From the IMG/VR virus record IMGVR_UViG_3300027708_000025, positions 62,001 through 126,000 of that record: a DNA stretch of 64,000 bases; one strand, 5' to 3'. Shown in pieces: positions 5,329 through 53,822 of this stretch. Source of the stretch: a virus. The notes under the pieces are model-generated. The model saw only the letters and a program-made list of their open reading frames with translations. It did no database searches and was not told the origin of the DNA. The number at the start of each line of letters is the position of its first letter. Within the stretch, counting starts at the first letter, position 1. The position numbers and the translations under genes are program-made.

Positions 5329-5355
5329 TCAAATTCCTTCTTATTAATTTTACGT

Positions 5356-6378: not shown

Positions 6379-6416
6379 AAATGTTTCTCATAATATACAA
6401 TGTCAATTGAATGTCT

Positions 6417-6445
6417 ATTATATCAGACATTCAGACGGAAGTCAA
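6417..6445 (-). promoter_or_regulatory. Sigma70-like early promoter of the primase/nrd operon
   Basis: On the minus strand the -35 TTGACT (6440-6445) and a perfect -10 TATAAT (6417-6422) are separated by exactly 17 bases. It lies directly after the stop codon of the coiled-coil membrane protein and about 40 bases upstream of the primase ATG. It should be read by unmodified host RNA polymerase early in infection. Confidence 0.85.
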
Positions 6446-7586: not shown

Positions 7587-7591
7587 AACAA

Positions 7592-7711: not shown

Positions 7712-7720
7712 ATTGTTTCC

Positions 7721-8761
7721 TTATACTGTGAATTTCTGATTATGCGTCATAAAGTTTTTCTTACGCATAACTGTCTTTGCTACTAAATCTAACTCTTCCG
7801 CATCTCTATCCCACTTCAATACAAATGGCAAATTGATTTGCGTCTTCATGTCATTCAATACTGCTTCAGCATCAGGTCCCAATGCGGGAATCTTTTTACC
7901 ATACTTTTGAATCGTCTTTTTAAATAACAACTGCAATTCATCTACTGTGATAGGTTTACCATTGCGTGAATCGTTAACTCTATCTAAAAAATGTTTAGTG
8001 AATGCAACATCAACATTTAACACTTTGAACAATTGATCTAGGTATTTTTCTAATTCATTTAATTGCGCCTGAGAAACTTCTTCAATTAATTGCTCTTTTT
8101 CAAATTGTTCTGTAAACATTCCACTACGCCCATGTCGTAAGAAAATCATTGAGCCAGTCTTTTCATCTTGTAGAATGATTGGCTTCTTAGGATACTTTCT
8201 GCCGTAGGTTCGTATTGCATTTCCAACTTCATCACTACCAACATACTTTTCATACTTAAGATATTTCTTTTTACCTGTACGTGCTTTGTTAAAACGCTCT
8301 GTGTCAACAACAAATACATCATTCTTTGCGAATCTACGTAAGAATGTTCTGCTTGCTGGAGGATTACCATCTAAGCCTGCAATGCCACTAGTTCCATTTG
8401 CAACATCTTCTTCTACGCCTTCAGACAAATATGTCTTGCCATTGTAATAGTCTAAGAATTGTTCTTCTAACGTTTCTTCTTTAATGTTCTTTTCTTCTTT
8501 GAGAAGGAACAATGCGGCCGCATAGGACGCAAGTTTGGTTTTACCAAATGGCAATTTTTCCAAAACTTTTTTAAGTTTTAGAATCAATAAGTCAAACTTA
8601 GTGAATGAATCATCTTGTGCTATTGTTCTTTTATCTGAAGGTACGACAATGTTTCCTTCGTCATCAATAACACCAGTTTTGTATGCTTCCCACTCTCCGA
8701 ACGGAGTAGTAAACAATCTTAAAATTCTATACACTAAGTATAAGTCTACTAAATTTGCCAC
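7721..8761 (-). CDS. Conserved T4-like phage protein, probable internal or structural protein
   Basis: A 346-residue protein. The N-terminal third (LVDLYLVYRILRLFTTPFGEW, then KLPFGKTKLASYAAALFLLKEE near residues 70-91) and the C-terminal domain (FTKHFLDRVNDSR to LVAKTVMRKK, residues 255-338) both look conserved and I recall them in T4-like marine phages, where they occur next to virion genes. The C-terminal segment has the feel of a small toxin-like or nuclease fold, without a definable catalytic set. It is followed by the lysis cluster and preceded by structural genes under a late promoter. Function unknown. Confidence 0.75.
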   Translation of the reverse strand: MANLVDLYLVYRILRLFTTPFGEWEAYKTGVIDDEGNIVVPSDKRTIAQDDSFTKFDLLILKLKKVLEKLPFGKTKLASYAAALFLLKEEKNIKEETLEEQFLDYYNGKTYLSEGVEEDVANGTSGIAGLDGNPPASRTFLRRFAKNDVFVVDTERFNKARTGKKKYLKYEKYVGSDEVGNAIRTYGRKYPKKPIILQDEKTGSMIFLRHGRSGMFTEQFEKEQLIEEVSQAQLNELEKYLDQLFKVLNVDVAFTKHFLDRVNDSRNGKPITVDELQLLFKKTIQKYGKKIPALGPDAEAVLNDMKTQINLPFVLKWDRDAEELDLVAKTVMRKKNFMTHNQKFTV

Positions 8762-9118
8762 TTATATACTCTTCTTTAATTTGTTGTACAATGCTAAATC
8801 TAAAACTCTTACGTCTTCTAATTTAACATACTCAAGATAAACTAAAAATGCATTCAATACATCATGGTTTTTTATATCTATCTTGAACCGTAACATATTG
8901 ACAGCCGCTTCAGCACCAAACACATTTGAAAGAGAAATTATGTGATTCAAAATCAATCTCTCTTTCAACTCACTCTTATCTACATATTTGTTTATAAGTC
9001 TTTTGATATACTTGATAATTTTCAGATCATCTAAAAACTCTAAAACTGATATGCAATTAGGATTAAAGTAGTTGCTTACTGCGTACTCATCAAAGTTATC
9101 ATCATTTAATGTAGACAT
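8762..9118 (-). CDS. Small conserved helical phage protein
   Basis: A 118-residue, mostly helical soluble protein. The core LEFLDDLKIIKYIKRLI (residues 26-42) and LILNHIISLSNVFGAEAAVNML (residues 55-76) match my memory of a small family widely conserved in T4-like cyanophages and relatives (possibly DUF7207). Its ATG overlaps the stop of the tail-fibre-like gene as TAATG, so it is coupled to virion genes. No enzymatic motif is visible. A structural or assembly role is likely from context only. Confidence 0.8.
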   Translation of the reverse strand: MSTLNDDNFDEYAVSNYFNPNCISVLEFLDDLKIIKYIKRLINKYVDKSELKERLILNHIISLSNVFGAEAAVNMLRFKIDIKNHDVLNAFLVYLEYVKLEDVRVLDLALYNKLKKSI

Positions 9119-9654
9119 TAGAACGTGCTTAGTGCCACTCGCTTAATATGTGTCGTATTTGCCGCAATGTAAAGATAATTTGCATCCCAAGCAATTGTAC
9201 CTACTCCCCAACCAACTGCTGTATTGTTTGAACTTGCTGGTGTTCTAGCGGTACGCAAACGGACTGCATCAGAATTAATGTCGAATACTTCTGTTGGTGC
9301 ATTTGTTAAGAGACCAATTTTATCTGTAGTAGCATTAACATAAAACATGTTTGCCTGATTGTCAGATGAAATTCGTGTATCGGATGCAGAACCACTACTA
9401 TTGATAGTGATACCAGTATTGACTGTAAGTCCGTTTACTGAATTGATTGCAAATGTATTAGCTGAGAGTGTGCTTGTGCCTGATGCGCTAATGCTAATTG
9501 CGTTGACGCTGACTGTTGAAGTTGCGCCAAAGAAATTGTCTACAGTAATTTTTTTGCTTACTGGTGAACCCAATGGATCATCAATAACTAATAATAAATC
9601 TTCTTTTGTTGCTACAGTTAATGCTGTTAACTGCGTTACTTTTTTATCTGCCAT
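9118..9654 (-). CDS. Virion structural protein, short fibre-like
   Basis: A 178-residue protein rich in Ser, Thr, Asn and Ala, of the low-complexity beta type found in phage fibres. The N-terminal [20 protein letters not shown]...[14 protein letters not shown] (residues 4-42) is a common attachment module at the start of phage structural proteins. The rest contains triplet-like repeats (INSSG, TNAPTEV) typical of the shaft and tip of appendages. It has a good ribosome-binding site (AAGGAAG). Likely a small tail or head fibre. Confidence 0.75.
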
Positions 9655-9663
9655 TTTTCTTCC

Positions 9664-9735
9664 TTAATGTAAACCCAATTGAATGGGAATGCTACTTCCG
9701 GGACTCGGACCAAAAGGGGCAATGGTTTTACCCAT
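9664..9735 (-). CDS. Candidate 23-residue micro-protein between two structural genes
   Basis: A 24-codon frame, MGKTIAPFGPSPGSSIPIQ then LGLH, occupying most of the gap between the 266-residue and 178-residue structural genes. It is preceded by a weak GGGG ribosome-binding site, and a GTG immediately before the ATG is also possible. The Pro/Gly-rich sequence is strongly non-random for a spacer. It could be a real micro-protein or a coupling leader. There is no homology that I can recall. Confidence 0.45.
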   Translation of the reverse strand: MGKTIAPFGPSPGSSIPIQLGLH

Positions 9736-9749
9736 CACCCCATATAAGA

Positions 9750-10550
9750 TTAAACTGTTGTCAATGTTGCGTTTGCAGACACGACATTCGCTGAAATTCC
9801 AGTAGAAGACATTGTGACACGGTAGAGTGAATTTGAAAGTCCACCACCACCAGCCGCAATTGTATTGTTTGCAATCGTCAATGTTGTATTTGTTGTATTG
9901 CTGTATGTACCAGCGTTTGTCAAGTCCACGAATGCCGCATTTGAATTTGCGGCACGTTGCCAACGATAGTTGATCGTATTGCCAACTGGACGAATGCTTG
10001 CAACAATTGTGAATGTAGCGGCTGAGTTATTAGCGGCGCTATTAGCACTTGGTTGTGTGGTGATTGTGATAAAGCTATCACCGAATATTGCATCTTCTGC
10101 GTCACCAGTAATGGATCCCATTGAAACTAGAGTTTCAGTTTTTCTACGGCTGTTACCATGCATGTCAGTATACGTGTTTGTAAACTTCCAACCTGGTATT
10201 TCGTTGTAAGCTGTTGCTTCGTTTGTGTCAACACCAAATGTGTATGCGGTATTTGAAACTTGTGAACTTTGAACAGTTGCGCTGTTAGCGGCTAACCACT
10301 TTGGTGTGTCTTGTCCAGTAACTGTGCCTGCAACGTTAGCCGCAGTCCATGCTGGTTCAAAAGTCAATACTGTATTGCTTGTGATTCCAACAATTTTGCG
10401 TCTTGTTCCAGCAAGAACAAATGTGTCACCAACATCTAGTTCTGTTGTAAACACGGTTGATGTGCCTGTTAATATTGTAGTGTTAACAGTACTGTTTGCA
10501 AATGCAGTTCCTGTTACTGCGAATGTATCTCTGCTTCCCCATAGTGCCAT
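9750..10550 (-). CDS. Virion structural protein with Ig-like domain
   Basis: A 266-residue protein starting MALWGSRDTFAVTG, a start I associate with T4-like phage head or tail decoration proteins. Residues 21-80 form a beta module (TSTVFTTELDVGDTFVLAGTRRKIVGI...) also present inside the tail sheath protein of this phage. A central segment (residues 105-150) is unique. The C-terminal 110 residues (ITITTQPSANS...YRWQRAANS...TLTTV) have the pattern of an Ig-like fold of the kind used for surface adhesion. A late promoter element lies 57 bases upstream at 10607-10614. Probably a decoration or adhesin-like virion component. Confidence 0.82.
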   Translation of the reverse strand: MALWGSRDTFAVTGTAFANSTVNTTILTGTSTVFTTELDVGDTFVLAGTRRKIVGITSNTVLTFEPAWTAANVAGTVTGQDTPKWLAANSATVQSSQVSNTAYTFGVDTNEATAYNEIPGWKFTNTYTDMHGNSRRKTETLVSMGSITGDAEDAIFGDSFITITTQPSANSAANNSAATFTIVASIRPVGNTINYRWQRAANSNAAFVDLTNAGTYSNTTNTTLTIANNTIAAGGGGLSNSLYRVTMSSTGISANVVSANATLTTV

Positions 10551-10565
10551 GGTGTTCTCCTTTAA

Positions 10566-11060
10566 TTAATATCCGATTTTTCGTAATTGTGAAATAGTGT
10601 TAATACTATTTATATGTCTTATTCCTATTCCGCCCTTCGCAACCCACTCTTTTATGTTTTTTTCATAGTCATCTATTAAAAGATTAGGGGTTCCATCGCT
10701 AGTTACAGCGAATTTTTGTTTTTCTTCTCTTGGAACAAGATAAACATGCTCTACATTACCTAAATGTTTTCTAATCCATTCAAGTTTTTCTGGTTTACAA
10801 GTAGCCATACGCTTAGAAGGCGTAGACAATATGTAAGGCTGATGAGGCTTGATGTATCTCCATAACATCATAGCGTCAGACATAGGCTCTAAGTTAGCCC
10901 AAAACTTTGGTACTGAACGTAGTGCTTCCCATTTGACATCTTTTTCTCCTTGCTGAAAAGGCTGTAGACCTTTTGCCATTAATACTTTATTTGCGCCGCC
11001 CATAAAGTTGACTAGCACTTGGTCCATGTCACAATAAATTTGTGGCAATTCGTTATTCAT
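10566..11060 (-). CDS. HAD-superfamily 5'-nucleotidase-like phosphatase
   Basis: A 164-residue protein with the HAD motif I D11-x-D13 in YCDMDQVLVNF, a motif II-like ILSTPS (near residue 98) and a C-terminal motif IV LLIDDYEKNI (near 137). This matches the deoxyribonucleotidase (NT5C-type) phage branch that dephosphorylates (deoxy)nucleoside monophosphates. It sits between structural genes and a large core-like gene, so its role may be nucleotide salvage or phosphate release during infection. The TATAAATA late element of the next gene lies inside its 3' end. Confidence 0.85.
   Translation of the reverse strand: MNNELPQIYCDMDQVLVNFMGGANKVLMAKGLQPFQQGEKDVKWEALRSVPKFWANLEPMSDAMMLWRYIKPHQPYILSTPSKRMATCKPEKLEWIRKHLGNVEHVYLVPREEKQKFAVTSDGTPNLLIDDYEKNIKEWVAKGGIGIRHINSINTISQLRKIGY
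10607..10614 (-). promoter_or_regulatory. T4-type late promoter element TATAAATA
   Basis: An exact TATAAATA on the minus strand, inside the 3' end of the HAD gene and 57 bases upstream of the Ig-like virion protein start at 10550. It matches the T4 late -10 consensus recognised by the gp55 sigma factor, encoded at 45904-46530. Confidence 0.75.
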
Positions 11061-11061
11061 T

Positions 11062-12897
11062 TTATTTTGCCGTATCTTTCAATTCAGGATTGATTTCAAT
11101 TGGTTCTCTTTTACCTGTCAATTGATCGCCTTTTTGAACTGTAGCCTTGTTAGGTGCTTCTTCATTCTTTGTTTTTTTTCTCATGTCTTTCCATGACTTC
11201 TTTTTAGCTTCAGTTACAATTTCAGTTTGTTCTTTGTTTAGAAGATTGTGATAGCGAACTGCTTTCTTCAAGTCTTTGCTTGCGTTTGCATTCTTTGGAT
11301 CACCTGCTTTGTCAAAATGATCGTCTGCTTTTTGTTGTGCTTCATTACCACGTTTGAGTTTATTAAGTTTGTCTTTAATAGTGGCTATGATGCTTTCAGA
11401 CATTTTTGGTTTCTTACCAGCCTTCTTCATTGCGATAGCGATAGCCGCTTGCTGTGCTGGTGATGCCGCTTCTTTAGCCAAACGCTTTTCTGCTCTGTCT
11501 TGTCCAATGCTTCTCATTGAAAATTTGTGTCCCGCTTTATTTGCAGACTTTGGATCGTTGTCTCTAATTCCTTTACCAATCTTGTTGAACTGATCGCCCT
11601 GATCTTTTTCAGATTTCTTAGCATAAGAGTGCAATGTGTCTTTGTTCAATTCGTCTAACTGAATCTCTTCGATGTACATGTTCAACTCATACTTGTGATT
11701 GTCCATATTGTACACTTGAAGGTGTAATTTCTTTTTAGATTCTTTGCCATCTTTCATTAGATTGACAGAGAATGAATTTGTTTTACCAGCAGATGGTTTC
11801 TTAGGACCAGTAGCAACTTTATCGTGCCAATCGTCCATGTCTACTTCAAAGCCACGCTTCTCTGCTTGTTTGATTGCTGTCTGTACTGCTGTGGAATAAT
11901 CTTTATGATAAACTTCGTAGTCAGATTTTGCTTCATCCATACGCCCATTAGATGCAAGTCTTTCTTTACGTCTTTGTGCGGCAAAGTCAGCACCTTGTGG
12001 TTTCTTTTTATTGCGAATTGCGGCTAAGTCAAAGCCATCAATCTTGCCGTTCTTGTTCTTGTCAAGTGCTTTTTGTTTTGGTGATAATTCTTCACCACGC
12101 AACTTTGCTAAATCAGAACCATCAATCTTGCCGTTCTTATTTTTATCTAATGCTTTTTGTTTTGGTGACAACTCTTCATTCTTTCGTTTTGCATAGTATG
12201 CGGCAAGAGCCATTTTCTTTCTCATCTCTTTAGACTTACCAGCAAACTTAGGATTATCAGAGTGTACAAAATCGTGAATAAAATCACCGGCGGTTGCATC
12301 TTTAGCAAGAACTTCAGCCAATTCAATATCTAATTCTTCATTTGTTTTCTTAGCATCATTGTCAAATTGCTTTCTAGTTGCTTTGATAATGCCAGAGAAA
12401 CGCTTGTTACCTTTTTTGATATCGCCTGCTTTGTCTGCGGCTGATGCATCAGCGCCAGCTTTCTTTTTGTAGTCTGCTAGTTTGTCGGTTGACAACTCAT
12501 CAATTTGCACTTCTTCTTTTTTCATGCTCTTTCTCATAACACGATTCTGTGCAAGTTTAGATACAAATTTTACATTTGCATCAGCAAGAGATTTTAAAGA
12601 TTTTAAATCTAATTTATCAAGCATAGCAATTAATTTCTTGTATGTGTCGCTATCCGGATCGATTGTATTAATCTTAGAGTACTCTGCTTTCAAAGCGGCA
12701 ATTTGAGATGCGCTAAATGATTCTGTCATTGTTTCTTCCTTCTGTAAAGATTTTTTTTGTGCTGAAAGTGCTTGACGTTCTTTATCTTGTTTCATACGTA
12801 ACTGAATCATTTTCAATGATAATTGGGCACGTTTTTCAGCAGTTTTATCTGCAATCGCTGTACCTGATCCAACTTTTGCTTCTTCTATATTTTTCAT
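11062..12897 (-). CDS. Large Lys-rich EF-hand protein, probable internal head protein
   Basis: A 611-residue, highly charged helical protein. I chose the ATG at 12897 because GGAGAT lies 8 bases upstream; the reading 12 bases longer would use GTG. The N-terminus MKNIEE-AKVGSG resembles the T4 internal-protein start MKTYQEFIAE-ARVGAG, with a possible gp21 site after IEE. Two near-identical 28-residue units carry EF-hand loops (DKNKNGKIDGSDL and DKNKNGKIDGFDL). Two related modules, QIDELSTDKLADYKKK and QLDELNKDTLHSYAKK, look like spaced (I/L)-D-E protease sites. It sits directly after the 960-residue mosaic protein. Probably packaged in or cleaved within the prohead (inference). Confidence 0.72.
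   Translation of the reverse strand: MKNIEEAKVGSGTAIADKTAEKRAQLSLKMIQLRMKQDKERQALSAQKKSLQKEETMTESFSASQIAALKAEYSKINTIDPDSDTYKKLIAMLDKLDLKSLKSLADANVKFVSKLAQNRVMRKSMKKEEVQIDELSTDKLADYKKKAGADASAADKAGDIKKGNKRFSGIIKATRKQFDNDAKKTNEELDIELAEVLAKDATAGDFIHDFVHSDNPKFAGKSKEMRKKMALAAYYAKRKNEELSPKQKALDKNKNGKIDGSDLAKLRGEELSPKQKALDKNKNGKIDGFDLAAIRNKKKPQGADFAAQRRKERLASNGRMDEAKSDYEVYHKDYSTAVQTAIKQAEKRGFEVDMDDWHDKVATGPKKPSAGKTNSFSVNLMKDGKESKKKLHLQVYNMDNHKYELNMYIEEIQLDELNKDTLHSYAKKSEKDQGDQFNKIGKGIRDNDPKSANKAGHKFSMRSIGQDRAEKRLAKEAASPAQQAAIAIAMKKAGKKPKMSESIIATIKDKLNKLKRGNEAQQKADDHFDKAGDPKNANASKDLKKAVRYHNLLNKEQTEIVTEAKKKSWKDMRKKTKNEEAPNKATVQKGDQLTGKREPIEINPELKDTAK
12010..12177 (-). repeat. Tandem duplication of an 84-bp EF-hand unit
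   Basis: Two adjacent in-frame copies of a 28-codon unit (EELSPKQKALDKNKNGKIDG, then SDL or FDL and a short linker) inside the large Lys-rich gene. The copies are almost identical in protein but differ at synonymous positions, so the duplication is not recent and is under protein-level selection. Each carries a canonical D-x-N-x-N-G-x-I-D-x-x-D calcium-binding loop. Confidence 0.8.
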
Positions 12898-12910
12898 GCG
12901 TATCTCCACT

Positions 12911-15793
12911 TTAATCTAATTCGCTTACGCTTTTGTCTGAACGCCACATTTGGCAAGACCAGTAGTTTGCTTTCCACTTTGGTCCAGGATTGTCGCAACC
13001 GTGTCTAGCACGATAACTTTTTAATCTTTCAGGATCGTCACGTTTGATTTCCATATTAGGATCACCAAAACGAACGACAACAACTTTACCATTTGGTCCC
13101 ATAGTGTATACACCAAACTTCTTTGGACCATCAGGTGTTCTGAATGGATCATTTAACTTAACAGATTTACCTTGATATTCTGCTTCATTGACAACTTGTT
13201 CCCAATCAACTTCTTCTCCAATTGAATCTTTTTCGCAATCACCGCAACAAGATTGATGATCTGCTGTTTGAATTTCTGTAGGTTGACCTGGAGTATCTGA
13301 GGCATATGCTTTACGCATCGCATCTGTACCCCATTCTAATGCTTCAGCAAATTTAGAAAACGCTTCATTCTTGTTAACCTTAGATGCTAGATCACTATCC
13401 GCACCACCCCATGTTCCTTTACCTTTTGTGATAAAAGAATTCACTCTAGCGAATGCCCATTGTTGTGATGTTGTTCCAGGACGATGGCCACCTTGCCATG
13501 CCGCCATGCCACGATTATATACTGCTTTTAGAATGCTATATGGTATACCAGATTTTTCTGCTTTCTTTTTCAATCCTTCGATTTCTTCTAAGATTGGTTT
13601 GAATTCTTCGTATGCATCACCAAACTCATCTGGTTGCATTTGACTTAGATGCATATCCATTTCTGCACCAGAAAACTCGCCATCATCTTCTTCACCATTA
13701 TCATCAATCTCAAAATTATCATCAAATTCTAGATAGTCACGAACTGTAGCAATGTAATCTTCTGCTTTAGTAATCTTAGATAAAACCCACTCATCAGGCT
13801 CTTCATCCATGTCATCTAACTGTTGGATTAAATCTTCTGCATCATCAATAATGTTAGACAATTGAATTTGTGCCATAGAGATTCCATCCATCTCTGCGGA
13901 ATCATCATATTCATCATCATATTCATTGTCTTCATTCATACCGACAAGTTTCATGCCAGTAACGTCTTGAATTAATTTCCAAGCGGCAGATTGATTTTTA
14001 TCTGCAATAAGTTTTTTAAGTTTTTCTTTTTCTTCTTTTGTTGCAACTTCAAAGAACTTCATCATTTCCATCATGCCAATGTTGCCTTTGTATGCGGCTT
14101 CATCAATAGACTCTTTTACAGTATTGAAATATGCTTCTGCTTCTCTTTTGCTTTTAAATGTCTTAGTCTGACTTGCAACAGAACCAGTTACTTTCCACTC
14201 AATGTGGTCTGTCGTTCTTCCAGCAGGCATTGAAATCTTTTCTATTTTTGGTGTTGTTTTTGTTGCAGGAATAATGTACTTTTTAAATCTATCGTCCACA
14301 GCCTCTTTTTGCAACTGTGTCTTTGTCATTCTAAACAATGCATCGCTTGAAGTTACCATATCAAGTAGCGTTGTCAACAAATCATTTGTGACATTGCGCT
14401 CTGAGGGACTTAACATGTCACCAGATTTTAATTTATCAACAGAACGTTTGATAACTGCAAGAGATTTAGTGTCTGCTAATCCCAAACGAACCAATTGGTC
14501 TAATCTAGAAACTTCTTTTCTTTGCTCTGGAGTTTTTACGCCTTCACCATACATCTGTTTGAATTTTTTTGTAAATTTAGATTGTGGTAAACCTTTTTCT
14601 CTAGCCTCTTTATCTCCAGGTGCATCTTTGTATGCGCTCTTATCTGAATCCGATTTCGGTCCATTTGTCGCAAAGTGTGATGCTCTAGCGTCTTTTGTAT
14701 CTTTGTCTAAACCAACATAATACTTCTTAGGTTGTGTTCCGTCTTTCTTTGCAACATCTTTGTCTTGTGGTAGAATTGGTTTTTCGATAATGAATTCTGC
14801 AAAGATATGATTGATATCTTCTTTGTTCATCATCATGGTTGCTTTACGTACAACTTCAGCGGATCTTGCTTTTGGAAATAAACGAACTGCAAGTTTTTTA
14901 ATAGCAGGTAAAGATTTTTGTAATCTCTTATCAACTGCAATTTTCTCTCCAGTACTTAAGTCTGCATAGTTTTTACCACCAGCAAGTCTTGATCTAAAGA
15001 ACTTGTATGCCATTTTAGTGGCACGACCTTTTAAATGTTTTGTATCTGCAAATCTTTTCATTTGCAATGCTCTAGCACGTTGAATGCGTTTTGACATTCT
15101 ACGTAACTGTTGCGCTCTCTGTCTACGTGCAGAGAAACTTAATACCGCTTCGTCTTGTTGTTCTATTTCTTCGTTCATGCCACCGCCTATGTATTTGTCT
15201 AAAAGTTTTTTCACCTTAGCTTTGTTTTTAGCTTTTGGATATAAATCATCAATGATTTTATCTCTACCTTCTGAGTCTGCGTCTGAATACATTTTTCTAA
15301 CTTGACTACCAGAGAATGCTTCTTTGCCATTAACTTTAAAGTCATGTTTCTTAGTCACAAAAATATATGCGTGTGTCTCAAATGATTCACACTTATCAAT
15401 GCTGACAAATGGTTGATAGTATGCTGGTGAACCATCTTTCTTTGTGTACTTCATGGGATCACGTTCAGAACGAATAAGAATGAGAACATCTTTCTTTTCG
15501 TCATACTTCTTCATAATCTCTTCTGGATTAATAGGCGAAACTGTTTGAACGAAATCGTCTGTAACTCCTGCTTGTTGTGCTAGGAATTCTTTGTCTTTGA
15601 ATGGGATTGGGCGGACTTTTGTGTCATTGCTAGATGCAACATAAAAGTCTGGAGTGTGGAATTTTTGTTTGGCTTGAGTGTAACTACTCAAATGACCGGC
15701 GTGAAATGGCTGAAAGCCACCACCGTATACGACAATTACTTTGCCCTTGGCTTTTGCTTCATCAAGCAATATTGATTCTTTAAACGATTTCAT
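12911..15793 (-). CDS. 960-residue mosaic virion protein with N-terminal NMNAT-like cytidylyltransferase domain
   Basis: Residues 1-12 (MKSFKESILLDE) look like a capsid-targeting peptide ending in a gp21-type LDE site. Residues 17-205 form a nucleotidyltransferase of the NMN adenylyltransferase/cytidylyltransferase fold, with GGFQPFHAGH (H31-A-G-H34) and SGSQVRK (161-167). Residues about 220-330 are an Arg/Lys-rich helical segment. A YYVGLDKDTKDARASHF module follows. Near 780-850 is GIPYSILKAVYNRGMAAWQ-type sequence, which I recall as DUF5824. The C-terminal 90 residues (KLNDPFRTPDGPKKFGV to NPGPKWKANYWSCQMW) are another recurrent phage module. A late promoter lies at 15858-15865. It may be proteolytically processed in the head (inference). 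Confidence 0.8.
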   Translation of the reverse strand: MKSFKESILLDEAKAKGKVIVVYGGGFQPFHAGHLSSYTQAKQKFHTPDFYVASSNDTKVRPIPFKDKEFLAQQAGVTDDFVQTVSPINPEEIMKKYDEKKDVLILIRSERDPMKYTKKDGSPAYYQPFVSIDKCESFETHAYIFVTKKHDFKVNGKEAFSGSQVRKMYSDADSEGRDKIIDDLYPKAKNKAKVKKLLDKYIGGGMNEEIEQQDEAVLSFSARRQRAQQLRRMSKRIQRARALQMKRFADTKHLKGRATKMAYKFFRSRLAGGKNYADLSTGEKIAVDKRLQKSLPAIKKLAVRLFPKARSAEVVRKATMMMNKEDINHIFAEFIIEKPILPQDKDVAKKDGTQPKKYYVGLDKDTKDARASHFATNGPKSDSDKSAYKDAPGDKEAREKGLPQSKFTKKFKQMYGEGVKTPEQRKEVSRLDQLVRLGLADTKSLAVIKRSVDKLKSGDMLSPSERNVTNDLLTTLLDMVTSSDALFRMTKTQLQKEAVDDRFKKYIIPATKTTPKIEKISMPAGRTTDHIEWKVTGSVASQTKTFKSKREAEAYFNTVKESIDEAAYKGNIGMMEMMKFFEVATKEEKEKLKKLIADKNQSAAWKLIQDVTGMKLVGMNEDNEYDDEYDDSAEMDGISMAQIQLSNIIDDAEDLIQQLDDMDEEPDEWVLSKITKAEDYIATVRDYLEFDDNFEIDDNGEEDDGEFSGAEMDMHLSQMQPDEFGDAYEEFKPILEEIEGLKKKAEKSGIPYSILKAVYNRGMAAWQGGHRPGTTSQQWAFARVNSFITKGKGTWGGADSDLASKVNKNEAFSKFAEALEWGTDAMRKAYASDTPGQPTEIQTADHQSCCGDCEKDSIGEEVDWEQVVNEAEYQGKSVKLNDPFRTPDGPKKFGVYTMGPNGKVVVVRFGDPNMEIKRDDPERLKSYRARHGCDNPGPKWKANYWSCQMWRSDKSVSELD

Positions 15794-15857
15794 GTGTAAT
15801 AGAGTTTTCCGTAGACTTATCTGTACAGGTTTGCCTTAGCCTAACTGCGTTATAGTT

Positions 15858-15865
15858 TATTTATA
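15858..15865 (-). promoter_or_regulatory. T4-type late promoter element TATAAATA
   Basis: An exact TATAAATA on the minus strand, 65 bases upstream of the mosaic NMNAT-like gene start at 15793. It places this enzyme-like gene in the late, virion-assembly class. Confidence 0.8.
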
Positions 15866-15883
15866 ATAATATCAAATTACATT

Positions 15884-16942
15884 TTAATGTGGTGCATAAA
15901 TGCCTTTGCCGACTTCCAAATAAAATTTAGCTTCATTTGCTGGAGGTGGTCTCAATTTCGTTCGAATTTGAAATATAGGAACATCAGTTTTTTTGTCTTT
16001 AAATACTAAATTATTTCCATTTGATACTGCGGTTAGCTGAACCGTTTTTCTTAAATTATTAAAATACTCTACGGTAATTTCTTTCAACCCTGAGGAATTA
16101 ACATCAACTACGTCAGACAAATCAGAACCAAAAATACTCTTAGATAAAAAGTCCAAGGCATTTTTTGTGAACTGAGGTTTATTAGATTCTTTTATGATTT
16201 CTGTTTTTAAATCATTATACAGAGATGTTATCAATTCAAACTTTGCTTTTTGTTCTACGGGACCGAAAAATGGTTTTGATAATCTAACGTAATCTTCTTT
16301 GGCTGTCCATTTTATACCCAATGCGTCTGCTATGTCTAACATGCCGTTATACGGAGATAAATTTGCTACAGTAACACTTTCTGATTTTAATGAAAATGGT
16401 AATGATCCAGCAATTAGTTTTTTAGTGGAACCTTTTCTAACTGCATGTACTTCTAATGTAACATCGCCCTTAAGTTCTCCTCCGCTAGCCTCTCCAGCAA
16501 TACCATCTGATATTACCATAAATGTAACCACTTCTCCATAATTATTATCTAAAAAGTAATTTACAGCACCAGCGGCTCTTTTAACAAAGTTTGCTGTAGT
16601 TGTGGCTTCGATAAGTTTGTCAATTTTTTTATTAATATTACCAATGTCTTTAGATGATTTATACAGGACTTCATATTCTTTGTCGAATGCTCCAACAACG
16701 GACTCTGGCTTCAAACGCATTTCAAATCCAACATTAAAAAAGTCTGGAGGGTTTTGGCCCTTCTGCCTCATGTGATTTTCAACTACGGAATATTTAAATC
16801 TTCCAGTACTAAATATTTTGGTGTCAATTTTAGTACGAATTTTATTCAATTCATTCTTATCAACTTTTCCATATGCAAGATATAGAGACAAGGCAATAGT
16901 AAAAATTCCCTCAATAACATCACCTTCATTTAATTTAGCCAC
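15884..16942 (-). CDS. Conserved phage protein, possible PD-(D/E)xK nuclease-like fold
   Basis: A 352-residue soluble protein starting MAKLNEGDVIEGIFTIALSLYLAYG, a beginning I recall in phage hypothetical proteins. The middle has GDVTLEVHAVRK then PFSLKSESV (residues about 157-190), which resembles the D...SLK pattern of some restriction-endonuclease folds. The C-terminus ends FQIRTKLRPPP...KFYLEVGKG. The nuclease idea is weak because the metal-binding set is not clear. It lies between the iscU/iscA pair and the late mosaic gene. Function unknown. Confidence 0.72.
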   Translation of the reverse strand: MAKLNEGDVIEGIFTIALSLYLAYGKVDKNELNKIRTKIDTKIFSTGRFKYSVVENHMRQKGQNPPDFFNVGFEMRLKPESVVGAFDKEYEVLYKSSKDIGNINKKIDKLIEATTTANFVKRAAGAVNYFLDNNYGEVVTFMVISDGIAGEASGGELKGDVTLEVHAVRKGSTKKLIAGSLPFSLKSESVTVANLSPYNGMLDIADALGIKWTAKEDYVRLSKPFFGPVEQKAKFELITSLYNDLKTEIIKESNKPQFTKNALDFLSKSIFGSDLSDVVDVNSSGLKEITVEYFNNLRKTVQLTAVSNGNNLVFKDKKTDVPIFQIRTKLRPPPANEAKFYLEVGKGIYAPH

Positions 16943-16964
16943 ATTACTCTCCTTCTTTTAATTA

Positions 16965-17288
16965 TTATACACTAAAACTACTGCCACAACCGCAAGTGTG
17001 TTTTGCATTTGGATTAGTAATTACAAATTCTTTTCGCATAAACTCATCTTTGTAGTCTATGTTTGCATCTTGTAAATATTGCATACTCATTGCATCAATT
17101 AAAACTCTAAATTCGTCTAGAGGAAATTCAAAATCATCATCATTCTTAACTTCGTCCATTGTAAATCCGTAATTGAATCCAGAACATCCACCACCCACAA
17201 CAAACGTTCGTAGTGAAATGTTTGGATTGTTTTCTTCTCGTAACAAGTCTATGATCTTAGACTTTGCAACATCTGTTATTGTAATCAT
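16965..17288 (-). CDS. A-type iron-sulfur carrier protein (IscA/ErpA family)
   Basis: A 107-residue carrier with the three invariant cysteines C35 (GGGCSGFNYGF), C99 and C101 (TCGCGSSF), exactly the family signature. A-type carriers accept Fe-S clusters from the IscU scaffold and pass them to apo-proteins. The gene overlaps iscU by 32 bases, so the two are translationally linked. In a phage, likely client proteins are host or phage Fe-S enzymes needed during infection. The specific paralogue (IscA, SufA or ErpA) cannot be decided from the sequence. Confidence 0.95.
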   Translation of the reverse strand: MITITDVAKSKIIDLLREENNPNISLRTFVVGGGCSGFNYGFTMDEVKNDDDFEFPLDEFRVLIDAMSMQYLQDANIDYKDEFMRKEFVITNPNAKHTCGCGSSFSV

Positions 17289-17640
17289 TTATGGCCGCCT
17301 TTATAGCATCTTCTGCAAGTATTGAACAATGAATTTTAACCGGTGGTAAGGCAAGTTCTTCAGCAATTTGTGAATTAGATATCTTTCCTGCTTCGTCAAG
17401 TGTTCTGCCCTTGACCCACTCTGTGACAAGACTGCTGGATGCAATTGCACTTCCACAGCCGTATGTTTTGAATTTTGCATCTGTAATTATTCCTTCTTCT
17501 ACTTTAATTTGAAGTTTCATAACATCGCCACATGCTGGCGCACCCACCATACCAGTGCCTATGTTATCAGCATCTTTATCAAATGATCCCACATTTCGTG
17601 GATTTTCGTAATGATCTAAAACTTTTTGAGAATATGACAT
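17257..17640 (-). CDS. iscU: Iron-sulfur cluster assembly scaffold IscU
   Basis: A 127-residue full-length IscU. The three cluster-binding cysteines are C37 (GAPACGD, with D39), C62 (YGCGSA) and C105 (KIHCSILAED, with H104). The LPPVK motif at 98-102 is the recognition site for the HscA chaperone, which implies that the phage protein plugs into a proteobacterial ISC machine. It ends with an extra Cys pair (NNRCCKV). It is followed by an overlapping IscA. No phage cysteine desulfurase is seen, so sulfur must come from the host enzyme. Confidence 0.96.
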   Translation of the reverse strand: MSYSQKVLDHYENPRNVGSFDKDADNIGTGMVGAPACGDVMKLQIKVEEGIITDAKFKTYGCGSAIASSSLVTEWVKGRTLDEAGKISNSQIAEELALPPVKIHCSILAEDAIKAAINDYNNRCCKV

Positions 17641-17664
17641 ATTTGCCGTTAAAAATAGTTACCC

Positions 17665-17693
17665 GATGTATACATAAAGGTGTCCGGTTTCAA
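17665..17693 (-). promoter_or_regulatory. Possible sigma70-like promoter of iscU
   Basis: On the minus strand TTGAAA (17688-17693) and TACATC (17665-17670) are separated by 17 bases, in the 64-base gap upstream of iscU. The -10 match is only partial, so this is a moderate candidate. Confidence 0.45.
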
Positions 17694-17704
17694 TTTAAAC
17701 CTTA

Positions 17705-18931
17705 TTACCTCTGCCAACCTTTAATGATATCAGGTGAGAAGTTTGCATAGCTGAATTGCATTCTGTCAACTAACTTGACTGCATTGCCTTTGATCTTGTC
17801 AATAGCAACATACCCCTCAACACCAGTTACTTCGTAACCTTTTTTAGTCAACAAGAAAGTATTCAACGTCTTAACTTCATCCATTTTCTTAATCAAAATC
17901 AACTTCGCTTCTGCTAATAGATTCATCATTGTGAAAATGTCTTCTAAATGTGATTTGTTTTTTGGCGAGAAGAATTTAAGTACTTTGCTTTTCTTTAGCA
18001 TCTGAGTAGCACGACCACGTTCACCTTTACCTTCAGCCTGTTTCTCGTAGTAATCTTCAATGTATGTAATCAATTCTTTAACGTGCGCTTTGACGTTTGT
18101 GATTTTCAACTGTTGACGTACTTTTGAATTGTTGAATGTCTTAATGCGTTCAATCAAATCTTCATCTGTATTAATGTAGTTTAGAGTAGCGGCATCTAAT
18201 TTTTGGAATATCTTTCCAGCATCAGATAGAATTGCTGTCACTTCGTCACTCTCTGCTTGTGTCAACGTAGCTTTACCAGACACATCGTGATAGACTGCAC
18301 TTGTCATCCAAACGTTTGAATTTTTTGTAAGTGTGCTTAGAATGTCTTTACCAAAGACTGCTGATAGTGTCTCAAACGAATCACCTTCGTAAATTGTATG
18401 CCAAACGATACCAATCTTTGCTTTTTGTATCTCTTTAGCAAGTTCAGTTTCTGTCGGTACTGCATAGACTAAAGTATTTGGATGAAACGTAACATACGAT
18501 TCACCTTCAATTGTTTCTGTCTTTAAGTCTGCTTGTGTGAATAGCAAGTCGCCTTGAATGACACCTTTGATGTTGATCTTAGGCAAATACATCAAACATG
18601 CTTTGAGTTTGTCTGCTAAGTCGCCAGATGTGTCTGCATCAACTTCTGCTGGAGTTTTATACACTTTGGGATTTTTATTGAAGACGCCTTTTTTCGCAAC
18701 AAAGAATTTGCCGTCTGTTGGGTCTTGTCCTGCAAAGACTGCTGGCGCACCATCCCACTTGACTGAAATGTCAACTTTGCTTTTGGAATGTCCAGCAAGC
18801 ATATCACGCACCGCTCTGAGTGCGTTTATGCTATCTCTAGTACCTTCAACACCACCATTGAGAACATCGTCTTCCGCATGTTCCATGTGAGTGTTTTTCT
18901 TTTCAATAAGGTATTCTTTAAATTTAAACAT
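17705..18931 (-). CDS. Ligase-like nucleotidyltransferase with capsid-targeting-like N-terminus
   Basis: A 408-residue protein. Residues 1-10 (MFKFKEYLIE) match the capsid-targeting pattern shared by several proteins here and end in an LIE site. The body has features of the covalent nucleotidyltransferase (ATP-dependent ligase/capping enzyme) fold: K58-W-D60-G61 as motif I, FFVAKKGVFNKN, GVIQGDLLF, then E372-G-Y-V as motif IV and VKLV (385-388) as motif V. I recall the family as a phage DUF (possibly DUF6267). A late promoter sits at 18957-18964. A hairpin replaces the usual Shine-Dalgarno region. It may be a DNA/RNA-repair enzyme packaged with the genome (inference). Confidence 0.75.
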   Translation of the reverse strand: MFKFKEYLIEKKNTHMEHAEDDVLNGGVEGTRDSINALRAVRDMLAGHSKSKVDISVKWDGAPAVFAGQDPTDGKFFVAKKGVFNKNPKVYKTPAEVDADTSGDLADKLKACLMYLPKINIKGVIQGDLLFTQADLKTETIEGESYVTFHPNTLVYAVPTETELAKEIQKAKIGIVWHTIYEGDSFETLSAVFGKDILSTLTKNSNVWMTSAVYHDVSGKATLTQAESDEVTAILSDAGKIFQKLDAATLNYINTDEDLIERIKTFNNSKVRQQLKITNVKAHVKELITYIEDYYEKQAEGKGERGRATQMLKKSKVLKFFSPKNKSHLEDIFTMMNLLAEAKLILIKKMDEVKTLNTFLLTKKGYEVTGVEGYVAIDKIKGNAVKLVDRMQFSYANFSPDIIKGWQR

Positions 18932-18960
18932 AATAGGTCTGTCGTTGCAATAGACCTATT
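18932..18960 (-). promoter_or_regulatory. Leader hairpin abutting the start codon
   Basis: AATAGGTCT (18932-18940) and AGACCTATT (18952-18960) form a perfect 9-bp inverted repeat with an 11-base loop. On the minus strand the stem ends directly at the ATG (18931) of the ligase-like gene, and no Shine-Dalgarno is visible. It lies inside the leader made from the late promoter just upstream. It could restrain translation or serve as a protein-binding site. Confidence 0.65.
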
Positions 18961-18964
18961 TATA
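18957..18964 (-). promoter_or_regulatory. T4-type late promoter element TATAAATA
   Basis: An exact TATAAATA on the minus strand, 26 bases upstream of the ligase-like gene start and 1 base after the stop of the preceding gene. It marks the ligase-like gene as late expressed. Confidence 0.75.
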
Positions 18965-49551: not shown

Positions 49552-50904
49552 TTACATCAAGTTCGTAATTGAAAATCTACGATAGTAGATGTTCTTGTTA
49601 GCGAAAGTCAATGTACCATCAGCAGCCGATGTTGCGAATGGGTTTGCGACCATACCGTAACGTGTTTTGAAACCAATCTTTGGTTGGAATGTGTCTTGAC
49701 CAACTGCACGAACCATTTGCAATGGAACGTATGGGCAATAGAACAAGCCAGCATCAAAAGCTGAAGTGCCTTTGTAGCCGATTGTTGCATAGTGTGTACC
49801 AGATGTTGCGGCAAAATATGGATCAATATAAACTTTGATACGACCATTCAATACACCAGCGAATGTGTTACCTGTGTCATCAACTTGTAAGTTGTTAGAT
49901 GCAAGTGCTGGAGTGTAATCAAGAACACCAGCCATTTGCAATGCAGATGCTACGTCTGAAGAACAGATAAGCACGTTACCTTTACCTCTACGAGTTGCTT
50001 TAGCAATTGCATTGGCTTCACGCTCTAATTGGAACATCAAACCTTTGAACTTCTCAACAGACCAACGACCGTTAGAGTCAACATCAAGGTTGAATGTGCC
50101 AGCAGTTGTAACGTTCTCTTGTGCGCCAATAGTAGCTGTCAAGTTGATAGTACGAACAACTTCACGGTTAATTTCAGCTAAGATTTCTGTAGAAAGAATG
50201 TTTGCTAATTCTTGTTCAGCATCCAAACCATGGACTGCTTTCAAGTCTTGTGCAAGTTCCATTGTGTATTCTGCTTTCAAAGCACGGCTCTTTGCAGTAA
50301 CAGCAATCTTTTCAATGGAGAATGCCATCTCTTGGAATTGATTACCAGAACCATCACCTAATGCTTCAGCATTGGCTGTTGTCATACCTGTACCACGTGT
50401 GTACTCTGTACCACCTGACAAGTCAGCTGGAGATGCACCTGTGTGGGCTGCGGCAACTGGAGATGTTCCACCTGCAACAGAAGAGAATGAAGTGTTTGCT
50501 TCGTTGAACAATGCTTCAGTTCCACCTTGTGTGGTGTAACGGCTACGCATTGCAAAGATCAAGCCTGTTGGACCTGTCATTGGTTGAACACCGCAAATGT
50601 CGTATGCGATTAAGTTAGGTGCAGAACGGCGAACCAAGCTAATTAAAACTGGATCATAAATGTCGATTGCACCATCGGCCGCTGTAGATGAAGATGCGCC
50701 CATTGCGTTAGCAGGTGCAGTTTCAGACAACAACGATGTTTGATTGCGATAACCACCAGAACCCTGTGCATCTTCACGGCAAGCACGTTCTTGGTTCTCA
50801 AGAAGTTGTGCTGTTACGGCACGCTTATGGGAATCCTTGATTGAGGCTAAAGCGCCATGGTCAAGAACTGGTGCCCATTTTTTTAAAAGATTTTCTACGC
50901 TCAT
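49552..50904 (-). CDS. 23: Major capsid protein (T4 gp23-like)
   Basis: A 450-residue HK97-fold capsid protein. The propeptide is visible (MSVENLLKKWAPVL...) with a prohead-protease site LSE at 59-61 (SLLSETAP). The body has YDICGVQPMTGPTGLIFAMRS and the C-terminal YGMVANPF. It forms the hexamers of the icosahedral head. A late promoter TATAAATA (50933-50940) and a terminator frame it. No separate gp24 vertex gene is seen next to it. Confidence 0.97.
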   Translation of the reverse strand: MSVENLLKKWAPVLDHGALASIKDSHKRAVTAQLLENQERACREDAQGSGGYRNQTSLLSETAPANAMGASSSTAADGAIDIYDPVLISLVRRSAPNLIAYDICGVQPMTGPTGLIFAMRSRYTTQGGTEALFNEANTSFSSVAGGTSPVAAAHTGASPADLSGGTEYTRGTGMTTANAEALGDGSGNQFQEMAFSIEKIAVTAKSRALKAEYTMELAQDLKAVHGLDAEQELANILSTEILAEINREVVRTINLTATIGAQENVTTAGTFNLDVDSNGRWSVEKFKGLMFQLEREANAIAKATRRGKGNVLICSSDVASALQMAGVLDYTPALASNNLQVDDTGNTFAGVLNGRIKVYIDPYFAATSGTHYATIGYKGTSAFDAGLFYCPYVPLQMVRAVGQDTFQPKIGFKTRYGMVANPFATSAADGTLTFANKNIYYRRFSITNLM

Positions 50905-51909: not shown

Positions 51910-52560
51910 TTATAGCTTGGAGAGGAAATCTTTAAACACTTTTATCATGTTTTCTTCCAAGTCTTTCTTAGAAGACTTCTGAATGACTTGTCTCTGTGTT
52001 GAAATGTCGGCTTCTCTAATGATTCCGTTATCCCAAACCCATGCTTTATTTTCCATAATACCACGTACATATGCATCTGGTGCTGAAGGATCGGCTACGA
52101 TATCTGCACATGTTGCGAGATAAAAATCGTTACCAACAACTTTAGTTCCATCTTTTCCTTCTACGAGACTACCTAAGCCTCTTGTAGATACGCCTAGCGT
52201 TGCGCCTTCAGTCATTAAATTCTTTACGATGTTACCGTATGGTGTTTCCATAATCTTTGCTTTACCGATGAAGTTGTTTCCATCTTGACGCAAACTCTTA
52301 GTAATGTGTGACACACGTTCTAAATTGATAGTTGGACCATCTGGATGCCCTAACTCACCATAAGCACGATTCTTCATTACACTTTCAGTAACATATCGAT
52401 CTGTTTCTTTTTGCAAAACTGCTAATGGATACATTCTTCCATTACGATTCTTTTGTTCTGCTTGCATGAAGATACCTTCAATGTAGAAACTTCTACCGCC
52501 AGCTTCGTTTGCTTCAGTAATGATATTTACTTGCTCATTAATTTCTGTGATTAGTTTCAT
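51910..52560 (-). CDS. 21: Prohead protease (T4 gp21-like)
   Basis: A 216-residue serine protease of the herpesvirus-assemblin fold. The family blocks FYIEGIFMQAEQKNRNGRMYP, ELGHPDGP (His) and LGVSTRGLGSL (Ser) are clear. It cleaves scaffold, capsid propeptide and internal proteins at (L/I)-x-E. Its own start MKLITEI...IITEANEAGG has an ITE site for self-processing. Expressed with the core proteins upstream. Confidence 0.95.
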   Translation of the reverse strand: MKLITEINEQVNIITEANEAGGRSFYIEGIFMQAEQKNRNGRMYPLAVLQKETDRYVTESVMKNRAYGELGHPDGPTINLERVSHITKSLRQDGNNFIGKAKIMETPYGNIVKNLMTEGATLGVSTRGLGSLVEGKDGTKVVGNDFYLATCADIVADPSAPDAYVRGIMENKAWVWDNGIIREADISTQRQVIQKSSKKDLEENMIKVFKDFLSKL

Positions 52561-52847
52561 TTTAGTCCTGCCGATGTTCTTTTTCTAAGTGACCTTGTTC
52601 TTTTGCGTAGAATCAAAGCAAGTTTTGGTGCACGTTTTCTAGCCGCTTTGCGTTGTGCCATTTTACGATGCATTTTTTCTTGTGAAGACATTCTTACAAG
52701 TTTGCCTCCTAAGACTTTATATCCAGGTGTTGCTGATACAATTTTTCTGCGCTGAACAATTCCAGCACGTACTCTATTGACTTTAACAAGCCTAGCTTCG
52801 TCTACCTGTTCGTCAGACAAAGATATAAAATCTTTAAATTTTAACAT
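52557..52847 (-). CDS. Basic prohead core protein with capsid-targeting-like N-terminus (gp68-like position)
   Basis: A 96-residue, very basic protein. Residues 1-17 (MLKFKDFISLSDEQVDE) have the capsid-targeting pattern and end in a VDE site. The rest (RRKIVSATPGYKVLGGKL..., KMHRKMAQRKAARKRAPK) is a nucleic-acid-binding-like basic segment, similar in style to the Arg/Lys-rich module inside the 960-residue protein. It sits in the T4 gp68 position upstream of gp21. Probably packaged with DNA. Confidence 0.78.
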   Translation of the reverse strand: MLKFKDFISLSDEQVDEARLVKVNRVRAGIVQRRKIVSATPGYKVLGGKLVRMSSQEKMHRKMAQRKAARKRAPKLALILRKRTRSLRKRTSAGLK

Positions 52848-53315: not shown

Positions 53316-53822
53316 TTATTCTTTCGCTATAGTTTTTGCAAATGCTAAAAGTACTTCAGCATCTTCTTCCAACTGATTCAAAAAGATTTCTTGATTGCTT
53401 TCGTCTAACTGATCGTAAAGATTAGAGAGTAAATCAACATCTTCGTTTTTCAAAGCACCACGTGCCTGTGCGGCTTTAAGCATTGCAACTCTATCTTTGT
53501 ATCCAGCAACACCAGGTTTGATATCTTTAGCGGCTTTCTTTTCAGCGGCATTTGGATTACTAATGTGTTTCATTGTAGTCTTAGACTGATGACTATCAAC
53601 TTCACCAAATGGTTGCTTGTTGTCGAGTCTATCAGCAGGACGTTTGCCAGAACCTTTTTTAGTGTCGTGTGGTCCGATTTCTTCAGGTCCGACTTTTTCT
53701 AAATCTCCAGGGTCTTTAGTTTGAGCAAGATATGACACGGCTGCCATTTTATTGGCAATAGCATCTTTGTACTTTACTCTTTCTATTTCATCCAACTGGA
53801 TAAAACTTTTAAAGTTCTTCAT
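53316..53822 (-). CDS. Prohead core/internal protein with capsid-targeting-like N-terminus
   Basis: A 168-residue charged helical protein. Residues 1-12 (MKNFKSFIQLDE) match the capsid-targeting pattern with an LDE site. The remainder has a disordered middle (KKGSGKRPADRLDNKQPFGE) and a helical end (LYDQLDESNQEIFLNQLEE). It overlaps the gp67-like gene by 14 bases. Probably a scaffold/internal head protein removed or packaged during maturation. Confidence 0.78.
   Translation of the reverse strand: MKNFKSFIQLDEIERVKYKDAIANKMAAVSYLAQTKDPGDLEKVGPEEIGPHDTKKGSGKRPADRLDNKQPFGEVDSHQSKTTMKHISNPNAAEKKAAKDIKPGVAGYKDRVAMLKAAQARGALKNEDVDLLSNLYDQLDESNQEIFLNQLEEDAEVLLAFAKTIAKE

What the first reader, a model, noticed from the sequence alone, without database searches (positions are those of the whole stretch)
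12911..18931. Two enzyme-like proteins with capsid-targeting-type N-termini under late promoters: candidate virion-packaged enzymes
Seen: the ligase-like protein (17705-18931) starts MFKFKEYLIE and the NMNAT-like mosaic protein (12911-15793) starts MKSFKESILLDE. The prohead-core proteins at 53316-53822 (MKNFKSFIQLDE) and 52557-52847 (MLKFKDFISLSDEQVDE) share the pattern M-x-x-F-K-x-(F/Y/S)-(I/L) followed by (L/I/V)-x-E. Both enzyme-like genes have TATAAATA late elements (18957-18964 and 15858-15865). Known: T4 internal proteins are packaged through an N-terminal sequence MKTYQEFIAE that gp21 removes after Glu. Inference: a KWDG ligase-like enzyme and an HxGH nucleotidyltransferase are packaged and injected with the DNA, perhaps for end repair or cofactor (NAD) synthesis at the start of infection.
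Basis: partly seen in the sequence, partly recalled or inferred. Interest (0 to 1): 0.85.

Follow-up and report, generated by a model that had tools for sequence, protein, structure and literature searches.

The report
Phage enzymes tagged for virion packaging
Two enzymes of this T4-like virus begin with the kind of short address tag that phage T4 uses to load proteins into its head, and relatives of one of them have been found in purified virus particles with the same kind of tag, so these viruses probably inject the enzymes together with their DNA.

Summary
The ligase-like protein (17705-18931, DUF6267) starts MFKFKEYLIE. This matches the T4 capsid-targeting sequence (CTS) at every position that T4 mutants showed to matter: 4 and 7 (targeting), 8 and 10 (cleavage). 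In 74 relatives those positions are kept while position 9 varies freely. Cyanophage DUF6267 proteins lack the tag and start at the enzyme core. Published mass spectrometry found the cytidylyl/NMNAT-type homologue in virions of S-SM1, S-SZBM1, S-SCSM1 and S-CREM2. I found that all four carry a textbook CTS (for example MKKFSAFLNE|A), which those papers do not mention in the passages read. In the whole S-CREM2 genome, 4 of 5 proteins matching the T4-type pattern are virion proteins, including a SAM hydrolase and a kinase. In T4 the pattern picks only ipII and ipIII. The window's NMNAT tag (MKSFKESILLDE|A) is a longer, weaker form resembling T4 ipI. Late promoters before both genes are conserved. 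No mass spectrometry exists for a tagged DUF6267. DUF6267 is fused to the transferase in several phages and has ligase-type motifs, but its activity and its role after injection remain inference.

The parts
17705..18931 (-). DUF6267 protein, 408 aa; KWDG ligase-like nucleotidyltransferase with an N-terminal CTS
   Evidence: PF19782 E 1.8e-105, profile begins at residue 13, after the tag; invariant K58-x-D60-G61, Q126-x-D128, E372-G373, K386, R390; AlphaFold pLDDT 87, residues 1-14 below 50
18902..18931 (-). capsid-targeting sequence MFKFKEYLIE (codons 1-10), predicted cleavage after Glu10
   Evidence: positions 4 F, 7 Y/F/H, 8 I/L, 10 E conserved, 9 hypervariable; T4 rules from PMC9026906
18957..18964 (-). 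late promoter TATAAATA, 26 bp before the DUF6267 start
   Evidence: conserved in 55/74 relatives
12911..15793 (-). 960-aa mosaic protein: CTS, HxGH nucleotidyltransferase, basic domain, DUF5824, C-terminal domain
15758..15793 (-). long-form CTS MKSFKESILLDE (codons 1-12), predicted cleavage LDE|A
   Evidence: compare T4 ipI MKTFKEFTSTTTPVSTITE|A, L058 MKSFKQAFSTSITE|A, L017 MKTFKASLTE|A
15473..15730 (-). CTP_transf_like (PF01467) domain with FHAGH and FSGSQVR motifs
   Evidence: Pfam E 5e-6; SxSxxR motif
14825..15214 (-). basic domain (phrog_23027); a separate CTS-tagged gene in C48C1 and Melnitz
13391..13573 (-). DUF5824 domain; a separate CTS-tagged gene in C48C1 (MITFKKYLEE)
   Evidence: Pfam E 7.6e-18
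15858..15865 (-). late promoter TATAAATA, 65 bp before the mosaic protein
   Evidence: present before 35/35 homologues
11062..12909 (-). 615-aa protein with DKNKNGKIDG repeats; faint similarity to a virion-detected cyanophage protein at the same position
   Evidence: 27.9% over 93 aa, E 0.035, to S-SZBM1_139, detected by MS; low-scoring EF-hand/dockerin matches
52557..52847 (-). gp68-type head scaffolding protein with N-terminus MLKFKDFISLSDEQVDE|A
   Evidence: phrog_3503 E 7e-7
53316..53822 (-). 168-aa protein in the prohead-core gene block, N-terminus MKNFKSFIQLDE
   Evidence: position between portal and gp21 genes; no significant family match
51910..52560 (-). gp21-type head maturation protease, the presumed processing enzyme
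   Evidence: phrog_207 E 3.1e-76
49552..50904 (-). major capsid protein; candidate cleavage site LSE|TAP near its N-terminus
   Evidence: phrog_138 E 1.4e-162; site by inspection

Best explanation
Both proteins are late-expressed cargo of the virus head. A T4-type N-terminal CTS binds the growing scaffold core (aromatic residues at positions 4 and 7), so the enzymes are enclosed in the prohead. The gp21-type protease then cuts after (I/L)-x-E, at E10 of DUF6267 and E12 of the mosaic protein, releasing mature enzymes (KKNTHMEH..., AKAKGKVIVV...) that stay with the DNA and are ejected with it. DUF6267 is most likely a divergent covalent nucleotidyltransferase of the ligase/capping superfamily. 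It works with the neighbouring NMNAT/cytidylyl-type transferase, to which it is fused in several phages. After injection the pair would act before any phage gene is expressed, most plausibly mending damage to, or modifying, nucleic acid or nucleotide cofactors under host attack. Shown by sequence: tag, conservation, synteny, fusion, late promoters. Shown by others: virion presence of the transferase homologue. Inferred: cleavage, injection, enzymatic activity.
For: 1) The DUF6267 tag matches the T4 CTS at all four functional positions (4, 7, 8, 10; PMC9026906), in 74/74 full-length relatives, with position 9 free. 2) Cyanophage DUF6267 lacks it and starts at NKHLEHLED; AlphaFold leaves residues 1-14 disordered, so the tag is separable. 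3) Cytidylyltransferases detected in virions by MS all carry it: S-SM1 MKKFSAFLNE|A, S-SCSM1 MKSFLQFLKE|A, S-SZBM1 MRFRQFIIE|A, S-CREM2 MKNFSSFLTE|A. 4) In S-CREM2, 4 of 5 proteins matching the T4-type regex are virion proteins against 48 of 214 others (p 0.012; non-structural only p 0.0016; without the transferase p 0.009); pooled with S-SCSM1, 5/7 against 95/494, p 0.004. 5) In T4 the same regex hits only ipII and ipIII among 438 ORFs. 6) CTS-less DUF6267 was not detected in S-SZBM1 or S-SCSM1; the untagged S-PM2 transferase was not detected in S-PM2 virions. 7) Late promoters are conserved before both genes. 8) The two proteins are fused in L051 and L056 and in S-PM2-type phages, and are neighbours in nearly every relative with enough flanking sequence.
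Against: No mass spectrometry of a phage with a tagged DUF6267. The window NMNAT has Ser at position 7, a residue important for targeting in T4, and several close relatives have no tag on the transferase (L024, L053, L068, L070, L071). In S-SCSM1 one of two CTS-like proteins was not detected. Authors of the cyanophage proteomes warn that abundant proteins can survive CsCl purification. DUF6267 fold matches are weak (best PDB E 0.034; none below 0.001). The substrate of neither enzyme is known.
Confidence: 0.75

Rival explanations
1. Only DUF6267 is actively targeted. The mosaic NMNAT-like protein enters, if at all, by binding DUF6267, and its N-terminus is a decayed tag.
For: The DUF6267 tag is perfect and universal in the clade, whereas the transferase tag is degenerate here and absent in about half of the close relatives. 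Fusion of the two proteins points to physical partnership.
Against: T4 ipI itself has a long-form tag much like the NMNAT one. The CTS-like start with E|A is kept while the catalytic domain behind it is swapped (MKSFKESVLLDEA before FQPFHAGH, MKTFKASLTEA before NPMTNGH). In cyanophages the transferase is the tagged and detected one.
Confidence: 0.2
2. The tag is real but the proteins act inside the prohead or during DNA packaging and are not delivered to the next cell.
For: In T4 some core proteins (gp22, gp67, gp68) are degraded inside the prohead by gp21 (literature), and the gp68-type protein here shares the tag pattern.
Against: T4 proteins with this tag (IPs) and CTS fusions are injected. 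Homologues survive in mature virions.
Confidence: 0.12
3. The N-terminal similarity is coincidence or part of the enzyme fold, and the virion detections are carry-over of abundant late proteins.
For: Carry-over is acknowledged by the authors. The pattern is short, and the first-look statistics in one genome are modest.
Against: 74/74 conservation with a hypervariable P2 position; absence in cyanophage orthologues; 4/4 tagged detected transferases; the S-CREM2 genome-wide test; perfect precision in T4.
Confidence: 0.05

Closest known systems
T4 internal proteins ipI, ipII, ipIII and their capsid-targeting sequence
   Same: Ten-residue N-terminal tag with aromatic residues at 4 and 7, I/L at 8 and E at 10; long form as in ipI; gp21-type protease present; late promoters
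   Different: The cargo here is a 408-aa ligase-like enzyme and a 960-aa mosaic transferase rather than small basic or inhibitor proteins
T4 Alt, a virion ADP-ribosyltransferase
   Same: An enzyme packaged with an N-terminal gp21-cleaved propeptide and injected
   Different: Alt's propeptide (MELITE) is not of this type; no homology
Virion-associated NMNAT/cytidylyltransferase of cyanomyoviruses (T4-GC190; S-SM1, S-SZBM1, S-SCSM1, S-CREM2)
   Same: HxGH-type nucleotidyltransferase, usually next to DUF6267, with a CTS, detected in virions
   Different: Those phages' DUF6267 lacks a tag. The window's transferase is a divergent type (FQPFHAGH, FSGSQVR) within a larger mosaic, with no match of S-SM1's protein in this genome at E 0.001
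Covalent nucleotidyltransferases (DNA and RNA ligases, capping enzymes)
   Same: KxDG motif I, EG motif IV, coherent but weak fold matches
   Different: Invariant HxxHxED N-terminal motif, helical insertion between the motifs, no significant PDB sequence match

Membership tests
T4-type CTS internal (head) proteins | N-terminal ~10-residue tag with key positions 4, 7, 8, 10 | tested here: met
   DUF6267: F4, Y7, L8, E10, conserved in 74/74. Mosaic protein: F4 and (L/I)xE|A met; position 7 is Ser and E is at 12 (long form)
T4-type CTS internal (head) proteins | Cleaved by the prohead protease after (I/L)xE | not testable with these tools
   gp21-type protease gene present at 51910-52560; cleavage needs N-terminal peptides
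T4-type CTS internal (head) proteins | Present in mature virions | tested here: inconclusive
   Met by published MS for transferase homologues in four cyanophages; no data for a CTS-bearing DUF6267 or for this phage
T4-type CTS internal (head) proteins | Late expression | tested here: met
   TATAAATA 26 and 65 bp upstream, conserved in relatives; consensus only, no RNA data
DUF6267 (PF19782) | Match over the curated cut-off | tested here: met
   353.8 bits against a cut-off of 27
Covalent nucleotidyltransferase / ligase superfamily | Motif I KxDG and motifs III, IV, V conserved | tested here: met
   K58-W-D60-G61, Q126-x-D128, E372-G373-x-V375, K386-x-x-D-R390 invariant or nearly so; assignment of III and V is by eye
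Covalent nucleotidyltransferase / ligase superfamily | Ligase fold | tested here: inconclusive
   Top PDB fold hits are mostly DNA/RNA ligases but all E > 0.03 and TM about 0.2
NMNAT (NMN adenylyltransferase) | HxGH and (S/T)x(S/T)xxR motifs in a PF01467 domain | tested here: met
   FHAGH, FSGSQVR, PF01467 E 5e-6; weak PPAT similarity E 0.44, so the substrate is open
NMNAT (NMN adenylyltransferase) | NAD synthesis activity | not testable with these tools
   needs an enzyme assay

The most novel reading that the evidence does not exclude
The injected pair is a self-recharging NAD-dependent ligase-type system. DUF6267 takes AMP from NAD and releases NMN, and the partner (in some phages fused) NMNAT turns NMN and ATP back into NAD, so the incoming genome is repaired or modified even when the host depletes NAD. 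More broadly, a T4-type CTS marks a whole class of injected enzymes (SAM hydrolase, kinase, Cas9-like nuclease, transferase, ligase-like) in cyanophage-type viruses and can be used to list them from sequence.
Probability: 0.15. Interest if true: 0.85.

Novelty: new variant of a known kind. Interest (0 to 1): 0.62.

Why it matters
Cyanophage proteome papers have repeatedly found enzymes in virions and could not say whether they were cargo or contamination. A T4-type address tag on these enzymes, kept at the residues that T4 genetics showed to matter and absent from untagged, undetected homologues, gives a mechanism and a sequence-based test. It would let injected enzymes be predicted across marine and freshwater T4-like viruses, and it puts forward the widespread unknown family DUF6267 (over 460 phage records) as an early-acting, injected enzyme in one large clade.

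Tried and rejected
Pfam, PHROGs, PADLOC and PDB sequence searches gave no function for DUF6267 beyond its own family. Foldseek gave ligases at the top but below significance. The T4-type regex as a general predictor in S-SCSM1 alone was not significant (2 of 282 proteins, one detected); only S-CREM2 and the pooled data were. The octamer count by itself is not significant. I considered that window 15884-16942 is the nuclease-like gene seen beside DUF6267 in Melnitz and HTVC008M; BLAST did not support it. The supplementary table of Sullivan 2010 (which proteins were detected in S-SM1, S-PM2 and Syn9) could not be opened, so whether T4-GC71 (DUF6267) was ever detected is inferred only from the main text. 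The S-SCSM1 virion set used (48 tags in GenBank) differs slightly from the 45 stated in the paper. The proteome of S-CBWM1, cited as a further NMNAT case, was not found in the library and its protein was not checked for a tag.
Full report
The window is part of a 150,107-base IMG/VR virus record, a T4-like virus related to Kyanoviridae, with nearly all window genes on the minus strand. 17705-18931 is DUF6267 (PF19782, E 1.8e-105); the Pfam profile begins at residue 13, just after MFKFKEYLIE. 12911-15793 is a mosaic: CTP_transf_like domain, a basic domain, DUF5824 and a small C-terminal domain. DUF6267 is found in 466 phage records, mostly cyanophages, and usually sits beside a cytidylyltransferase gene.

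The tag. T4 mutational work, as reviewed in PMC9026906, showed that residues 4 and 7 of the ipIII capsid-targeting sequence direct packaging and residues 8 and 10 direct processing. In 74 full-length IMG/VR relatives of the window DUF6267 (61-100% identical) these positions read F4, Y/F/H7, L/I8 and E10 without exception (counted back from the Glu where the tag is one residue shorter), while position 9 takes eight different residues. The column counts come from a regex that partly selects for the pattern, but one search lists every homologue unselected and shows no exception. C48C1 (MLDFKNFITE) and DLP_6 (MKFTQFLAE) have it too, Melnitz and HTVC008M have altered forms (MLTLINFSKYITE, MYNDLLVE), and cyanophage DUF6267 has none, starting at NKHLEHLED or with an unrelated extension. 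AlphaFold places residues 1-14 of the window protein outside the fold (pLDDT below 50). So the ten residues are a detachable element on a conserved enzyme.

The transferase. The window version starts MKSFKESILLDE|A. Relatives show MKSFKESVLLDE|A, MKTFKASLTE|A and MKSFKQAFSTSITE|A, while others start directly at the Rossmann fold. T4 ipI has the same long type, MKTFKEFTSTTTPVSTITE|A. The CTS-like start is kept even though the catalytic domain behind it is of two different types (FQPFHAGH or NPMTNGH). In many cyanophages the transferase, not DUF6267, carries the perfect tag: 84 sequences fit MK-x-F-xx-F-L-x-E with a free position 9.

Independent evidence from published virion proteomes. S-SM1 (PMC3037559), S-SZBM1 (PMC9146016), S-SCSM1 (PMC9602691) and S-CREM2 (PMC10665884) all report the cytidylyltransferase/NMNAT in purified virions. 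Their proteins start MKKFSAFLNE|A, MRFRQFIIE|A, MKSFLQFLKE|A and MKNFSSFLTE|A respectively. DUF6267 of S-SZBM1 (MAKNTHLEH) and S-SCSM1 (MQNKHQEHPED) lack the tag and are not among the detected proteins. S-PM2-type phages fuse DUF6267 and transferase in one untagged protein, and Sullivan et al. note that the S-PM2 study did not detect the transferase. Absence in a proteome is weak evidence, but the direction is consistent.

Genome-wide test. A regex fixed from T4 and these proteins (M, 1-3 residues, F/Y/L, two residues, F/Y/H, I/L/V/M, any, E) hits only ipII and ipIII among 438 T4 ORFs. In the fully read S-CREM2 genome it hits five of 219 proteins; four are in the published virion list: SAM hydrolase gp6, gp13, APH-like kinase gp14 and the transferase gp154 (Fisher p 0.012; among non-structural proteins p 0.0016; leaving the transferase out p 0.009). 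The detected Cas9-like gp12 has a similar stretch, RFASFMAE|A, about 20 residues in. In S-SCSM1 it hits two proteins, one detected (not significant alone); pooled p is 0.004. The kinase gene near DUF6267 in S-CRM01 starts MISFDQFLSE; PMC10665884 cites protein-kinase-like proteins as detected in cyanophage virion proteomes, among them Dreher 2011, which from my own knowledge is the S-CRM01 study. Searches of the held literature found no paper that links capsid-targeting sequences with cyanophage virion enzymes; subscription journals are mostly not held.

Expression. TATAAATA lies 26 bp before DUF6267 and 65 bp before the mosaic gene. Eight of nine such sites in the window lie 10-70 bp before a start codon, including gp23, gp22 and gp18 (p 7e-9), and the element is conserved before DUF6267 in 55 of 74 and before the transferase in 35 of 35 relatives. 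This fits late expression; no RNA data were available.

What the enzymes might do. An alignment of 33 DUF6267 proteins shows invariant K58-x-D60-G61, Q126-x-D128, E372-G373-x-V375, K386 and R390, plus an N-terminal HxxHxED motif. The first group reads as motifs I, III, IV and V of covalent nucleotidyltransferases (assignment by inspection). Fold searches put DNA and RNA ligases at the top, but no hit is significant. DUF6267 and the transferase are fused in L051 and L056 and in S-PM2-type phages, where the best structural match is a 591-aa protein annotated as cytidyltransferase-like (TM 0.90). The transferase has HxGH and SxSxxR motifs of the NMNAT type, but phmmer also touches phosphopantetheine adenylyltransferase (E 0.44), so the substrate is open. 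My preferred reading is a pair of injected enzymes acting on nucleic acid ends or nucleotide cofactors at the start of infection. The NAD-recharging version is an attractive but untested special case.

Verdict. Virion-borne NMNAT was already known in cyanophages. New here are the shared T4-type tag that explains it, DUF6267 as tagged cargo in one clade, the portability of the tag between partner enzymes, and its use to predict injected enzymes.

Noticed in passing
window 16965-17640: IscU-like (NifU_N, E 1.5e-52) and IscA-like (Fe-S_biosyn, E 1.1e-15) iron-sulphur scaffold genes lie between the DUF6267 gene and the mosaic protein.
   Followed up: partly
L051:5995-10134, L056:6001-10155: Single ORFs of 1379 and 1384 aa fuse DUF6267 to the NMNAT-like protein; the joint still contains a tag-like MKESFI(R/K)EA.
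   Followed up: yes
L004 (Melnitz) 3923-8586: Four adjacent genes carry CTS-like N-termini: a possible nuclease (TPKTDILIGNMRFSLKIG), DUF6267, a small basic protein and the transferase.
   Followed up: partly
L249 (S-CREM2) 3837-13331: Virion-detected SAM hydrolase, kinase and gp13 all start with a T4-type CTS, and the Cas9-like protein has one about 20 residues in; not discussed in the passages read of the source paper.
   Followed up: yes
window 11062-12909: 615-aa protein with repeated DKNKNGKIDG segments resembling calcium-binding loops; only faint similarity (E 0.035) to S-SZBM1_139, a virion-detected protein in the same gene position in that cyanophage.
   Followed up: partly
L002 6622-8031 (C48C1): The annotated start of the cytidyltransferase (6688) appears too late; the longer ORF begins MIKNFSQYLLE, a CTS.
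   Followed up: no
window 29617-30054: Ferritin-like (Dps-type) protein, Pfam Ferritin E 7.8e-19.
   Followed up: no
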